Shown here piece after piece: positions 44-6,842 of a stretch of DNA of 27,331 nt (position 1 is the first letter of the stretch; every line of letters starts with the position of its first letter). The notes beneath the pieces were generated by a model. It saw nothing but the letters and a program-made list of their open reading frames with translations. It ran no database searches and had not been told where the DNA came from. The translations under genes and the position numbers were made by a program. The DNA comes from a virus: positions 1 to 27,331 of IMG/VR virus record IMGVR_UViG_3300045049_000316. One strand, 5' to 3'.

Positions 44-88
44 TGGCGCGCCCGGCTGGGATCGAACCAGCAACCCCTGCCTTCGGAG
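44..88 (-). repeat. Partial tRNA-Arg(CCG) 3' half, probable attachment-site core (attL)
   Basis: Read on the minus strand this is a tRNA 3' half: an anticodon loop with CCG, a 3' anticodon-stem strand, a T-stem GCTGG/CCAGC around TTCGATC, an acceptor strand CGGGCGC and a terminal CCA (TGG at 44-46 on the plus strand). Similarity to a tRNA stops in the anticodon loop; no D-arm or 5' acceptor follows to the right, so the gene is incomplete. A 3' tRNA half that breaks off at the anticodon loop is typical of a crossover core left by tyrosine-recombinase integration. The orientation implies that the intact tRNA lies at the other end of the prophage, beyond the right edge. It could instead be the scar of another element. 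Confidence 0.65.
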
Positions 89-137
89 TTTTACGGACGC
101 GCACTGACCCTTTATAAATCAAAGCCTTACGCAACTC

Positions 138-201
138 GCAAGCTGCAAATCCAAGGCTAACCAAGGGCGATCCAGGCTGCGCCAGCGCCTGCAAGCTGCA
201 A
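138..201. repeat. 11-bp direct repeat GCAAGCTGCAA, two copies
   Basis: GCAAGCTGCAA occurs exactly at 138-148 and 191-201, start-to-start distance 53 bp, both within 120 bp of the presumed attachment core. Paired short direct repeats beside a core are what integrase arm-type or excisionase sites look like, but no integrase is visible to match them to. Confidence 0.35.
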
Positions 202-219
202 TTTAGCTGCACACCGGGT

Positions 220-235: not shown

Positions 236-523
236 GCTTGTTTCTACTGCGCCACAGGTGGGGACGCGCCTGATAGCGTCGAGGGCCTCCAAGGCGCACA
301 TTCAGGAAAAACATCTTCTGCCGTAAACATGTACAGACGCAGTTCCGCAACCTATGCTGTATGGACGTACAGGCCCGAGCACACCGAGCCCATGATAGCC
401 AGTGATGTCTTTCCGGGCCGCTGCTATCCGCTCACCGCTTGAGAAATGGGGGCGCTGTAGGTTGTATGAACCAACGGACGACTTTAAATGTAATCGTTTA
501 TCGTAACTGTTCGCGGGGTGAAA
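236..523 (+). ncRNA. Non-coding leader of the avcD-like gene; candidate AvcI-type RNA region
   Basis: From the tRNA fragment to the deaminase start there are about 435 nt with no gene that looks real; the only plus-strand reading frame (218-442) has implausible composition and no ribosome site. In the characterised AvcID systems the deaminase is preceded by a short RNA, AvcI, that inhibits it, so an AvcI-like RNA is expected in this position. Visible elements are a CTGT-N8-ACAG dyad at 357-372 and a small GGTT/AACC hairpin near 460-472. I cannot recognise AvcI by sequence, so this is a positional inference and the boundaries are arbitrary. Confidence 0.3.
357..372. promoter_or_regulatory. Possible LexA-like dyad CTGT-N8-ACAG
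   Basis: The core CTGT-ATGGACGT-ACAG matches the LexA half-sites exactly, but the flanks and the centre fit poorly (about 13 of 20 to the extended E. coli consensus). With eight fixed bases a chance match is expected roughly 0.4 times in a window of this size. It lies about 150 bp upstream of the deaminase gene, where a promoter for the leader could be. Confidence 0.3.
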
Positions 524-3200: not shown

Positions 3201-3254
3201 TCGATGCGCCTGTCAGCGCGCGTCGGGGTGAGCTATTATTTCGAAGGAATGGCA

Positions 3255-3274
3255 TACTGTATGTATACACAGTA
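3255..3274. promoter_or_regulatory. LexA (SOS) box upstream of the ShosTA-like operon
   Basis: TACTGT-ATGTATAC-ACAGTA has perfect 6-bp half-sites and agrees with the E. coli LexA consensus (TACTGT, alternating AT, ACAGTA) at 18 of 20 positions, differing only at two central bases. Betaproteobacterial LexA recognises the same CTGT-N8-ACAG core. It ends 19 nt before ATG 3294, an ideal place to block the promoter of the DprA-like gene, so the pair is probably derepressed by DNA damage. Confidence 0.75.
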
Positions 3275-3293: not shown

Positions 3294-4211
3294 ATGAGCA
3301 CACTATTTCAAGCCCCTACCGGATTGTTGTCTACCCCTCCGATCCAGCCGCTGCGAGAAATGGGCGCCTACGAGGCACTGTGGGAGTCGGACGCCGCGTC
3401 GTTCAAGACGATTGCCGAAACGTTCGGGCAGAACCCGTCCGCGACGCCATCGCAACTGGTCCCAGCGGAAACGATCGACGCCACGGTGCCAGAGGTTATG
3501 CGCCACCTCGACGCCGCGAAGATTTACGACTTCGGAGTGAGCATTCACGGCACTGCCGACTACCCCGATAAGCTGCGTGCGGCGCGGCATCCGATCGAAT
3601 TTTTCTACTATCGCGGTTGGCAGGACCTGGCGTTTGCGAGGCGCTCGGTCGCAGTGGTCGGCACACGAACCCCGTCCGACGCCGGCATCAAGCGTGCACG
3701 GAAGCTAGTCCGCAAGCTCGTGGAGTACGAGTTCACCGTTTTCTCTGGCTTGGCCGCAGGGATCGATACCGTTGCGCATACAACCGCAATCGAGTGCGGC
3801 GGACGGACGGTAGCGGTCATCGGGACTCCGATCACGTCGGCTTATCCACGCGAAAACCAGGCATTGCAAGAAGAGATCGCGCGCGACCATCTAGTCGTCA
3901 GCCAGGTACCGATCCTTCGCTATGCGCGTCAGACGTATCGAGGCAATCGATTGTTCTTCCCTGAACGCAACGCAACGATGTCAGCGCTCACCGACGCGAC
4001 GATCATCGTTGAAGCAGGCGAAACGTCCGGCAGCTTGACCCAGGCACGCGCAGCTCTTCAACAAGGACGAAAACTGTTCATTTTGGACAGTTGCTTCACC
4101 AACCCCGCTCTGACGTGGCCCGCACGCCTCGCTCTGCAGGGTGCCATTCGCGTGGTCGACTTCGACGATATATTGAAGCACCTCGAACACGATGGCCCTA
4201 CTTCAAATTGA
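3294..4211 (+). CDS. shosA: DprA/Smf-like SLOG-domain protein, ShosA-like (antitoxin component)
   Basis: The 305-aa product has the DprA Rossmann core: SVAVVGTRTPSDAG at about 118-131, FSGLAAGIDTVAH at 150-162, GGRTVAVIGTPITSAYPREN at 169-188, FFPERNATMSAL at 221-232, and VEAGETSGSLTQARAALQQGR at about 239-259. In ShosTA systems the DprA-like protein neutralises the partner phosphoribosyltransferase, and the pair defends against phage. The frame stays open upstream to 2949, but ATG 3294 is chosen because the upstream part crosses the SOS box and a low-complexity GGGGCC repeat; ATG 3261 is an alternative. The last 20 nt overlap the next gene, indicating translational coupling. A housekeeping DprA is unlikely, given the partner gene and the location in a prophage. 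Confidence 0.8.
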   Translation: MSTLFQAPTGLLSTPPIQPLREMGAYEALWESDAASFKTIAETFGQNPSATPSQLVPAETIDATVPEVMRHLDAAKIYDFGVSIHGTADYPDKLRAARHPIEFFYYRGWQDLAFARRSVAVVGTRTPSDAGIKRARKLVRKLVEYEFTVFSGLAAGIDTVAHTTAIECGGRTVAVIGTPITSAYPRENQALQEEIARDHLVVSQVPILRYARQTYRGNRLFFPERNATMSALTDATIIVEAGETSGSLTQARAALQQGRKLFILDSCFTNPALTWPARLALQGAIRVVDFDDILKHLEHDGPTSN

Positions 4212-4866
4212 TGCAACGACTCGGGGCGACCACGTCTATCTACGCCCCGACGACTACTGCCTCTACATCGGGGACTACACCGCTCGCGGCGGCTTCGGCT
4301 GCAGCCCGATCAACAATCTCGTTCTCAATTTCAAGAAGCCCGTATCGCGCCGCGGTTTGGCCGAGTACGTTTATAAGGAGCGGGCCATCGAAAGAGTCGG
4401 CCGCTTTTTCCGAGACTCATTTTCCTCCGACGCATTTCGGCAGGTAACCTTCGTCCCGATTCCCCCGTCGAAGGCCAGGCACCACCCCGAGCATGACGAC
4501 CGCGTCATGCGCTCGCTCTCACATATGGCCGGCTTGGTCCGGGCTGAATTGAACGTGGTCGCCGACATCCGCGAAATCGTCGTGCAACGAGATAGCTACG
4601 ATCCCTCGCACATGGCCAATGCCGGGGCTCGCATGCATGCGGACGACCTCCTACCGCTTTACATGATCGACGACGCCGTCGCGCAGCAGGCGCCAGCGCG
4701 AATCCTCGTTGTGGATGACGTTCTGACGACAGGTAGCCATTTCGTCGCCATGAAAACCGTGCTCACGAACCGATTCCCTGGCGCTTGGATCGGAGGACTG
4801 TTCGTCGCACGACGGCGGCCATCGGACGACGCGGCGATTGCGCCTCGGACATTGGAGAACCCGTAA
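4192..4866 (+). CDS. shosT: ComF-type phosphoribosyltransferase, ShosT-like (toxin component)
   Basis: The 224-aa product carries the PRPP-binding motif of type I phosphoribosyltransferases at about 171-183 (ILVVDDVLTTGSH), with the acidic DD pair and TTG loop intact, and the FVPIPPSKARHHPE region at about 88-100 seen in ComF-like proteins. In ShosTA the phosphoribosyltransferase is the toxic effector, acting on nucleotide metabolism and restrained by the DprA partner. The start overlaps the end of the DprA-like gene by 20 nt; no separate ribosome site is obvious. Catalytic motifs look complete, so the toxin should be active. No clear terminator follows the stop codon. Confidence 0.8.
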   Translation: MALLQIDATTRGDHVYLRPDDYCLYIGDYTARGGFGCSPINNLVLNFKKPVSRRGLAEYVYKERAIERVGRFFRDSFSSDAFRQVTFVPIPPSKARHHPEHDDRVMRSLSHMAGLVRAELNVVADIREIVVQRDSYDPSHMANAGARMHADDLLPLYMIDDAVAQQAPARILVVDDVLTTGSHFVAMKTVLTNRFPGAWIGGLFVARRRPSDDAAIAPRTLENP

Positions 4867-5082
4867 GGCCATTCACCTCTGATGGCGATTAAGGAAGCAT
4901 TCAGCATCCCACTGCCGCCCCCAGCCCATCAGCGCTTCAGCGGTTTCCCTCCCCCCCAGAAGCTGGTCAATCACCGCTTGCAGACTGGCTTTGACGCTAC
5001 CGTCCTGTTTCCCCCACAAAGCATAGAGCGCGTTCAGCGCATTGGCAGGCGTGGCGTTGACCACGCCTCGTGCCCGATGCAC
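4867..5082. other. Non-coding or remnant segment between shosT and the SRAP pseudogene
   Basis: No complete gene is visible. On the minus strand an open frame covers about 4873-5097 and reads sensibly (for example LNALYALWGKQDGSVKASLQ and AEALMGWGRQWDAECF), but its upstream part runs into the SRAP remnant and there is no ribosome site. It may be the end of a gene cut off by a rearrangement. I do not recognise the family. P2 has its cos site just outside gene Q, so cos could lie in or near this segment, but I cannot identify it. Confidence 0.3.
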
Positions 5083-5751
5083 CTGCGAAGGCTGCAACCG
5101 AGAGCAAACGCATAGCCAGTAATAAGATCGAGGCTGCGATACGGCGGCTCGGCGACCTGCGCCACACGGAACTGAACGAGCGGGACGGGAGGATTTTTCC
5201 GGGCCACTACGCGCCTGTCATAGTCATCGATAACGGCGAGCGCGTCGCACGGCCGATGCGATACCAGTGTCGGCCGGCTGGGAAGCCCGCCTTCTACGAC
5301 AAGAAGTACCCGGGCCTCTACAATGCGCGCCGGGACAACCTCGAAGGCTTTTGGGGGGCAACTCTTCGGTTTCCCGCACGGGTTGCTGGTCGCGAACGCC
5401 TTCTATGAAAACGTAAAGAAATCGCGGCTCGAAGGACTGGAACCGCTGCCTGGGGAGAAGGAAGAAAACGTCGTCCTCGAGTTCAAGCCGCGCCTCGCCG
5501 TTGATATGCTCGTTGCTTGCCTGCGGTCCCACTGGTAGGGCACCGTCGAACCGGACCTACTGCCGTTCCCCGCGATCACAGACAAGCCCCCACGGGAAAT
5601 TGCCGCAGTCGGCCACGATCGCTGCATCATCCCAATCCGGCGGGAAAACGTCGACGCGCGGTTGCGTCCTGACCCCGACGGCCTGCAACGCCTTTATGCC
5701 GTTCTCGATGACCGCGAACGCCCATGTTACGACCATCGACTCGCTGCTTGA
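5083..5751 (+). pseudogene. SRAP (YedK/HMCES-like) protein remnant: N-terminally truncated, frameshifted, amber
   Basis: SRAP proteins crosslink to abasic sites in single-stranded DNA through Cys2. Here the recognisable part starts at KAATESKRIAS (about 5083) and continues through PMRYQCRPAGKPAFYDKKYP and YNARRDNLEGFWG. At the G6 run near 5352-5358 one extra G shifts the frame, after which LFGFPHGLLVANAFYENVKK and EENVVLEFKP follow. The frame then meets TAG after ACLRSHW (about 5536) and, read through, continues to AGHDRCIIPIRRENVDA and a TGA at 5749-5751. The N-terminus with the catalytic cysteine is absent, so the gene cannot work. Three independent lesions argue against a single sequencing error. 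Confidence 0.85.
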
Positions 5752-5759
5752 CACGGCTG

Positions 5760-6842
5760 TCATGCCGTCGCAACAAACCCTCGCGCATGACCTGCTACGG
5801 ATTCGGAGGGAATCCCATATTCGTCGAACCTGACGACCTCTTCGCCAAGCCAGTAATTCAGCTCGGAAAAACGAGCCTGTAGAGGCTTGATTTCGTTCCG
5901 TCCGAAAACCCGCGCTGCTGTATCGGGGGTACCGAACCCGCCTGAGTTGCTCGGCACAATGCCAAGCAACTGCGGCGGCACTCGGTGCGCCGCGAGCAGG
6001 TCGTCACGCGTCACGTTCTTGATGTTGAAGAACTCGTCCTTTGCGGCGACCTCCGATACCGGAATGAGTTGGATACCGTCCTTCTTGCCGTTCGGCGCAT
6101 ACATAAACACGTTGCGGAAGTTGCCTGGCCCCTTCGCGTTCTTCAGTGCCTCGCGCATGTTGTCGACGTCCTCCTGCCTCTGCGCGGCGTCGGTCATGTA
6201 CAGAATGAAGCCCGCGTGGCTACCGTTCTCGTAGTATTTCCTGCGGAACAATGTCGACGACTCGTTCAGCCAAGCCGAGTGCAGGGAACTCAGATACTCG
6301 GGCAGCCCGTACACTTCCTGGTTGATGTCCGGCCGCATGAGTTGGAATACGCTGTCCGGCTCGAACTCGTGTCGGTCCCGCCACCCGTTCACATAGACGA
6401 AGCCGCTGAAGTCTGCCTTGCGACGCGTGTATTTCGCCAACGCAGGTTCGAGCCACAACGTTCCGCCCAGCCGATTCCGACGACGCTCGAGGTACCCATT
6501 GCCAAACGTCAAGAAGTCGAGCACCCATCGCTCGAACGCGTGCCGCGACAGCCACTTGTGCGGGCGGAATGTTGATGCCAGCACGTTGGCCTTGAAGTAC
6601 AGCGCCGAGCTATGGTGCGTGCTCGCACGAAACGACTTGGCAAGGCCCGCGAAGCTCACCGGCGGTTCGAACCATTCGCCGTTCGACCAACACTCCACGT
6701 AATCGAGAATCTCGGCGCGGTTCATCACCGGCGTCGGATCGTCGAATGTGAACGCCTCAGCTCGTGTGACCGGAGTGCCGGCCGTGCGCCCGCTGGCGGC
6801 GGACGCGACCGTGTACCGCGCACTCGTGCGGCGCTTGCTCAT
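5760..6842 (-). CDS. Q: Portal protein, P2 gpQ family
   Basis: The product is 360 aa (P2 Q is 344) and begins MSKRRTSARYTVASA. Typical portal wording of the PBSX/P2 family includes AFERWVLDFLTFGNGYLERR, RKYYENGSHAGFILYMTD, FRNVFMYAPNGKKDGIQLIP and VPPQLLGIVPSNSGGFG. Twelve portal subunits form the DNA entry vertex of the capsid and dock the terminase. The start at 6842 overlaps the stop of P by ATGA, which decides it over an upstream in-frame start at 6923. Transcription is leftward, as in P2. It ends 8 nt from the SRAP pseudogene, which is convergent to it. Confidence 0.93.
   Translation of the reverse strand: MSKRRTSARYTVASAASGRTAGTPVTRAEAFTFDDPTPVMNRAEILDYVECWSNGEWFEPPVSFAGLAKSFRASTHHSSALYFKANVLASTFRPHKWLSRHAFERWVLDFLTFGNGYLERRRNRLGGTLWLEPALAKYTRRKADFSGFVYVNGWRDRHEFEPDSVFQLMRPDINQEVYGLPEYLSSLHSAWLNESSTLFRRKYYENGSHAGFILYMTDAAQRQEDVDNMREALKNAKGPGNFRNVFMYAPNGKKDGIQLIPVSEVAAKDEFFNIKNVTRDDLLAAHRVPPQLLGIVPSNSGGFGTPDTAARVFGRNEIKPLQARFSELNYWLGEEVVRFDEYGIPSESVAGHARGFVATA

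What the first reader, a model, noticed from the sequence alone, without database searches (positions are those of the whole stretch)
3255..3274. Near-perfect SOS box in front of a ShosTA-like defence pair
TACTGT-N8-ACAGTA (18 of 20 to the LexA consensus, perfect half-sites) lies 19 nt before the DprA-like start. This would place a phosphoribosyltransferase toxin and its DprA partner under DNA-damage control, linking defence to prophage induction: the pair would rise just when the prophage is induced or when an incoming phage damages DNA. I am not aware of LexA control being described for ShosTA.
Basis: partly seen in the sequence, partly recalled or inferred. Interest (0 to 1): 0.7.

Follow-up and report, generated by a model that had tools for sequence, protein, structure and literature searches.

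The report
DNA-damage switch on phage-defence toxin
A phage-defence toxin-antitoxin pair (ShosTA) in a Burkholderia-type prophage has a near-perfect binding site for LexA, the bacterial DNA-damage repressor, just before its first gene, and about a third of its close relatives carry a LexA site of their own host group there, so DNA damage probably switches this defence on.

Summary
In detail: TACTGT-N8-ACAGTA lies at 3255-3274, 19 nt before shosA, and the pair matches PADLOC ShosA and ShosT. LexA control is strongly indicated. Burkholderia phage Mana keeps 18 of 20 box bases before its shosA, while only 8 of the 30 bases before the box match. A Cupriavidus genome has the same motif before its own lexA. 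Of 139 non-redundant ShosA upstream regions, 17 carry a CTGT-type and 30 an alpha-type LexA box, against 6 and 6 of 565 other genes in the same loci. Box type follows host class: alphaproteobacteria have 20 of 34 alpha-type and 0 of 34 CTGT-type. 42 of 46 boxed shosA genes are followed by a shosT-like gene. It is not universal: 93 of 139 lack a box, and so do the E. coli loci examined. The link to prophage induction is not supported. My searches showed no report of LexA control of ShosTA, but the main ShosTA mechanism paper is not held. No binding or induction was measured.

The parts
3255..3274 (+). LexA box (SOS box) TACTGTATGTATACACAGTA, proposed operator of shosAT
   Evidence: 0 mismatches to TACTGT-N8-ACAGTA; 18 of 20 bases kept in phage Mana; same motif before lexA in a Cupriavidus genome
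3210..3239 (+). Promoter-like site CTGTCA-18-TATTAT, candidate promoter of shosAT
   Evidence: Consensus scan, 9 of 12, 1 found against 0.0 in shuffles; not evidence of function
3294..4211 (+). shosA, DprA-like antitoxin (305 aa)
   Evidence: PADLOC ShosA PDLC03961 322.4 bits; Pfam DNA_processg_A
4192..4866 (+). shosT, phosphoribosyltransferase-type toxin (224 aa), overlaps the end of shosA by 20 nt
   Evidence: PADLOC ShosT PDLC03962 132.4 bits; PRPP-loop-like VVDDVLTTG; 62% identical to Mana's

Best explanation
3255-3274 is a LexA operator that represses the shosA-shosT operon. In undamaged cells LexA sits on it, close to or just downstream of the transcription start, and keeps both genes low. 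DNA damage makes RecA filaments, LexA cleaves itself, and the two-gene message rises: DprA-like ShosA first, then the overlapping ShosT. A review reports that ShosT harms the cell through the purine pool and DNA damage and that ShosA counters this, probably through recombination; the pair would thus be an SOS-regulon member whose toxin acts on the pathway that controls it. Shown here: the box, its conservation, its clade-matched recurrence and its place before the operon. Inferred: LexA binding, induction by damage, and use in defence.
For: Exact motif, the only one in the window. Box kept in Mana, 18 of 20, with 8 of the 30 bases before it matching. The same motif lies about 25 nt before lexA and directly before a UvrA-like gene in a Cupriavidus genome. 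Enrichment before ShosA: exact CTGT-N8-ACAG 12 of 139 against 0.32 in shuffles, GTTC-N7-GTTC 18 of 139 against 0.64, six control motifs 0 of 139; 17 and 30 of 139 against 6 and 6 of 565 other genes. Box type follows host class. 42 of 46 boxed shosA genes are followed by shosT-like genes. Negative control family, dCTP deaminase: 0 of 19 viral and 0 of 12 Burkholderiaceae upstream regions. Biology: review passage on ShosT and DNA damage (PMC12593503); the PRTase domain of RqlH induces SOS without its DprA-like partner (PMC4670107 passages).
Against: 93 of 139 relatives have no recognisable box. E. coli loci of both ShosTA subfamilies, the Agrobacterium plasmid, phage Riah and SopEPhi have none. 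In two Burkholderiales draws only 2 of 9 scored loci have a box, one being the centre genome. An Enterobacter plasmid locus has a GTTC-type match where the CTGT type would be expected. The promoter is only a weak consensus match. No binding or expression data.
Confidence: 0.85

Rival explanations
1. LexA control is real, but its main use is to keep a dangerous toxin silent, or to supply ShosA as a repair factor under damage, and not to time phage defence.
For: In Caulobacter LexA repression of higBA is strong enough that the antitoxin gene can be deleted without major effects (PMC13384398 passages). The reported trigger of ShosTA is T7 Gp0.7, an inhibitor of host RNA polymerase, not DNA damage (PMC12593503 passage). 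ShosA belongs to the DprA family.
Against: It does not conflict with the operator claim. A DprA plus PRTase pair in P2-like phages protects E. coli against T7 and lambda (PMC9122126 passages).
Confidence: 0.3
2. The box belongs to the phage cargo region rather than to ShosTA, or controls another gene nearby.
For: Mana and AP3 also carry a box before an SRAP cargo gene, and the window has a second core site before the dCTP deaminase.
Against: The box is 19 nt from shosA in the window and 15 nt in Mana, while the sequence around it has diverged. Boxes recur before shosA in alpha- and betaproteobacterial loci of other context.
Confidence: 0.05
3. The palindrome is a chance match without function.
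For: Most ShosA relatives lack it; 4 sites with up to 3 mismatches occur in the window against 2.17 expected.
Against: Exact half-sites, a typical spacer, conservation in Mana and enrichment before the family.
Confidence: 0.04

Closest known systems
ShosTA anti-phage toxin-antitoxin system (PADLOC PDLC03961/PDLC03962 subfamily)
   Same: Both proteins match the models; antitoxin gene first, toxin gene overlapping
   Different: A LexA box before the operon; the E. coli loci examined lack it, and no held paper found by my searches describes it
LexA-controlled higBA toxin-antitoxin of Caulobacter
   Same: Toxin-antitoxin operon repressed by LexA at a strong operator (PMC13384398 passages)
   Different: Unrelated toxin and antitoxin; there the LexA-controlled insertion is restricted to one lineage, here boxes recur across classes
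SRAP genes of the same phage group (Mana gp63, AP3 gp04)
   Same: Cargo gene of P2-like Burkholderia phages with a CTGT-N8-ACAG box 48 nt (Mana) or 67 nt (AP3) before the annotated start
   Different: A single SRAP gene (PF02586), not a toxin pair
RqlHI pair of E. coli
   Same: DprA-like protein restrains a PRTase domain that provokes SOS (PMC4670107 passages)
   Different: RqlH also carries a RecQ-like helicase; the word LexA does not occur in that paper's main text

Membership tests
ShosTA | ShosA (DprA-like antitoxin) | tested here: met
   PDLC03961 322.4 bits, 23-300 of 305 aa
ShosTA | ShosT (PRTase-type toxin) directly beside it | tested here: met
   PDLC03962 132.4 bits; loop VVDDVLTTG. 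Pfam gives only sub-threshold PRTase matches (PF00156 E 0.19)
ShosTA | Anti-phage activity and toxin neutralisation | not testable with these tools
   Needs experiments
Canonical DprA (transformation) | NCBIfam TIGR00732 cut-off | tested here: not met
   162.6 bits, cut-off 191.15
LexA (SOS) regulon | Operator of the beta/gamma type before the gene | tested here: met
   Exact motif; same motif before lexA in a Cupriavidus genome
LexA (SOS) regulon | LexA binding and damage induction | not testable with these tools
   Needs gel shift and expression data
LexA (SOS) regulon | Operator conserved in orthologues | tested here: inconclusive
   Conserved in Mana; clade-matched in 46 of 139 relatives, absent in 93
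SOS-inducible prophage switch | LexA box or cleavable repressor in the phage control region | tested here: inconclusive
   Control region not in the window; Mana has no box there and no S24 domain in its repressor

The most novel reading that the evidence does not exclude
ShosTA is a recurrent member of the SOS regulon in proteobacteria that takes on the LexA operator of whichever host class it enters, and it forms a self-amplifying switch: ShosT damages DNA, damage removes LexA, more ShosTA is made, and the cell either recovers through ShosA-assisted repair or dies. Slight replication damage by a phage would then tip the cell into abortive infection.
Probability: 0.3. Interest if true: 0.82.

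Novelty: new variant of a known kind. Interest (0 to 1): 0.64.

Why it matters
If true, an anti-phage toxin pair said to act by DNA damage and repair is itself under the DNA-damage repressor, which joins immunity to the SOS response without a dedicated regulator. It predicts that DNA-damaging drugs arm or trigger this defence, that tests of ShosTA under artificial promoters miss its native logic, and that the E. coli loci examined here, which lack the box, are not typical of alphaproteobacteria and some betaproteobacteria. The change of operator type with host class would show a mobile defence operon wiring itself repeatedly into its host's own damage response.

Tried and rejected
Box as chance: rejected. 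Box as part of the phage lytic switch: no support in Mana. dCTP deaminase (518-2116) as a second SOS gene: the exact core at 357-372 drew attention and its spacer fits moderately (top 0.44%), but 0 of 19 viral relatives and 0 of 12 scored Burkholderiaceae relatives have a CTGT-N8-ACAG core or GTTC-type site, one of them (L265) 66% identical (L274 gave no match, L277 is the second half of a split gene, and the L275 match starts only at residue 144), so it is not claimed. Xanthomonas-type LexA sites (motif recalled) were sought in 21 unboxed loci without a hit. A strict PRTase-loop pattern for finding shosT in relatives was too narrow and was replaced by an iterated profile. An SRAP remnant at 5070-5408 was suspected by eye, but Pfam and tblastn with the SRAP proteins of Mana and AP3 give no support. 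Triggering by phage through SOS could not be tested.

Rows dropped before counts: 181 records gave 141 after removal of near-identical loci and of matches that start beyond residue 40; 139 had enough upstream DNA; 134 entered the tree. Genome loci are the best 80 of 449 relatives and viral loci the best 80 of 95, so the fractions describe close relatives of this ShosA. Host classes were assigned by hand from record titles, and 7 of the 80 were dropped there as redundant. Related loci are not independent, so the Fisher values are too small.

Full report
What is there. The window is a 27,331-base virus record without a named host. It carries P2-type structural genes (portal, terminase, Phage_cap_P2). 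Its first 6 kb match 23 phage records, 19 of them named Burkholderia phages, with phage Mana covering most; a Burkholderia-type host is inferred. At the left end lie an anti-phage dCTP deaminase at 518-2116, then shosA 3294-4211 and shosT 4192-4866.

More than chance? The full motif occurs once. The core CTGT-N8-ACAG occurs twice against 0.20 expected. The spacer, which played no part in finding the site, resembles the spacers of 17 strong boxes in two Burkholderiaceae genomes: top 0.08% of all 8-mers in the window. In one of those genomes (Cupriavidus) the same motif lies about 25 nt before the lexA gene and directly before a UvrA-like gene, so this is the LexA operator there and not only in E. 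coli. In phage Mana, whose ShosA is 78% and ShosT 62% identical, the box keeps 18 of 20 bases, while 8 of the 30 and 28 of the 100 bases before it match in an ungapped comparison; it lies 15 nt before the homologous ATG. GenBank places Mana's start 66 nt further in, which makes the box look more distant from the gene.

Family-wide test. I collected ShosA relatives from viral contigs and species genomes, with two phage records. After removal of redundancy, 139 upstream regions could be scored. In 200 nt, exact CTGT-N8-ACAG is in 12 of 139 against a shuffle mean of 0.32 (maximum 4), the alphaproteobacterial type GTTC-N7-GTTC on either strand in 18 of 139 against 0.64 (maximum 4), the GAAC-N4-GTTC type in 1 of 139 against 0.34, and six control motifs and spacings in 0 of 139. 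In 275-nt windows CTGT-type boxes are in 17 of 139 and GTTC-type in 30 of 139, against 6 and 6 of 565 other genes of 150 aa or more in the same loci; 46 loci have one or the other, since L041 has both. Two GTTC-type hits look like chance: L041 at -3, and L110. In 21 of the 30 GTTC-type hits the base before the second GTTC is T, as in the Caulobacter LexA consensus (T/A)TGTTC-N6-TGTTC (PMC13384398, passages). In 6 of the 18 loci printed (L034, L045, L051, L061, L063, L073) TTGAC, a -35-like element, stands 4 nt before the box, by eye.

Clade matching. Of the 80 species-genome loci 73 were scored (7 redundant). Alphaproteobacteria have the GTTC type in 20 of 34 and the CTGT type in 0 of 34. Beta-, gamma- and unclassified proteobacteria have the CTGT type in 6 of 23 (beta 4 of 11) and the GTTC type in 1 of 23. 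The other 16 (other phyla and delta) have neither. On a FastTree tree of 134 ShosA proteins the CTGT label needs at least 9 changes and the GTTC label 13, although 49 of 130 inner branches are unsure. Of the 46 boxed shosA genes in that set, 42 are followed directly by a shosT-like gene, and of the 88 unboxed, 71. So the box heads the operon.

Results against. 93 of 139 loci have no recognisable box. E. coli loci of both PADLOC subfamilies have none (for phage P2_4C9 only 147 nt were at hand, but its chromosomal homologue L261 has none either), nor do phage Riah, SopEPhi and an Agrobacterium plasmid, while an Enterobacter plasmid has a GTTC-type match in an enteric host and a Rhizobium plasmid has the expected GTTC type. 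In two Burkholderiales draws of 399 and 398 genomes ShosA was found in 6 and 5 genomes (one in both); 2 of 9 scored loci have a box, one of them the centre genome's own, and L198 was not scored; several of these repeat loci. In the Sphingomonadales draw 3 of 4 first-copy loci have one, counting the centre. In the Enterobacterales draw 0 of 2 have one. The enteric-type boxes (L090, L114, L117) have an imperfect half-site. LexA control is thus a frequent trait, gained or lost repeatedly, and not a defining one.

How it most likely works. LexA bound at 3255-3274 blocks transcription from a promoter such as 3210-3239 (weak). Damage releases it, and the overlapping genes are expressed together. A review summarising Pu et al. 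2025 says that ShosT is a phosphoribosyltransferase and pyrophosphatase that disturbs purine metabolism, leading to DNA duplications, filamentation and death; that ShosA binds DNA and likely promotes homologous recombination; and that T7 Gp0.7 is a trigger (PMC12593503, passage; the primary paper is not held). In the related RqlHI pair the PRTase domain induces SOS when the DprA-like partner is absent (PMC4670107, passages). A LexA-controlled ShosTA would then sit in a loop with its own effect; that loop is inferred. A plainer use is tight silencing of a toxin, as reported for LexA and higBA in Caulobacter.

Prophage induction. In whole-genome scans of three relatives, Mana has strong boxes at ShosTA and before an SRAP gene and a weak core match at 32977; AP3 has one match, before SRAP; KL3 has one 10-of-12 match just after its repressor gene. 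The repressors of AP3 and KL3 show HTH domains only and that of Mana no Pfam hit. In the nearest relative the defence pair, not the phage switch, carries the SOS link.

Literature. ShosTA with phage gave 20 papers; I saw the listing of these and passages of three. ShosTA with LexA gave one paper, on AbpAB. ShosT or ShosA and LexA with defence or toxin terms were seen as listings, in part capped, and showed no report of LexA control of ShosTA. The library lacks many journals and Pu et al. itself, so prior mention cannot be excluded.

Verdict. The prophage-induction claim is not supported. This is a new regulatory variant of a known system.

Noticed in passing
window 355-374: A second exact CTGT-N8-ACAG core (TGCTGTATGGACGTACAGGC) about 145 nt before the dCTP deaminase start; not found before its relatives.
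   Followed up: yes
L259 37240-37259 and L258 1167-1186: Phages Mana and AP3 carry LexA-like boxes before their SRAP genes.
   Followed up: partly
L260 7773-7792: Phage KL3 has a 10-of-12 LexA-like match between its repressor gene and gp14.
   Followed up: no
L199-L206 (unnamed Sphingomonadales genomes) and L188: Some genomes carry two ShosA-like genes close together; the Rhizobium plasmid L188 has a second PRTase-DprA pair facing the first.
   Followed up: no
L021 6067: Mana's annotated DprA start lies 66 nt inside the homologous reading frame.
   Followed up: partly
window 4870-5760: Stretch between shosT and the portal gene without an identified gene; ORF 5070-5408 has no confident family match.
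   Followed up: partly
window 44-204: Matches the region after the integrase gene of phage AP3 at 83%, possibly the attachment-site region; no whole tRNA gene was found in the window.
   Followed up: no
G001:C15:109340-109358: A second LexA-like box about 700 nt upstream of the boxed Cupriavidus shosA.
   Followed up: no
PDB 9vzo_A: A solved structure named DprA-like antitoxin protein ShosA exists; it is only distantly similar to this ShosA (71.5 bits).
   Followed up: no
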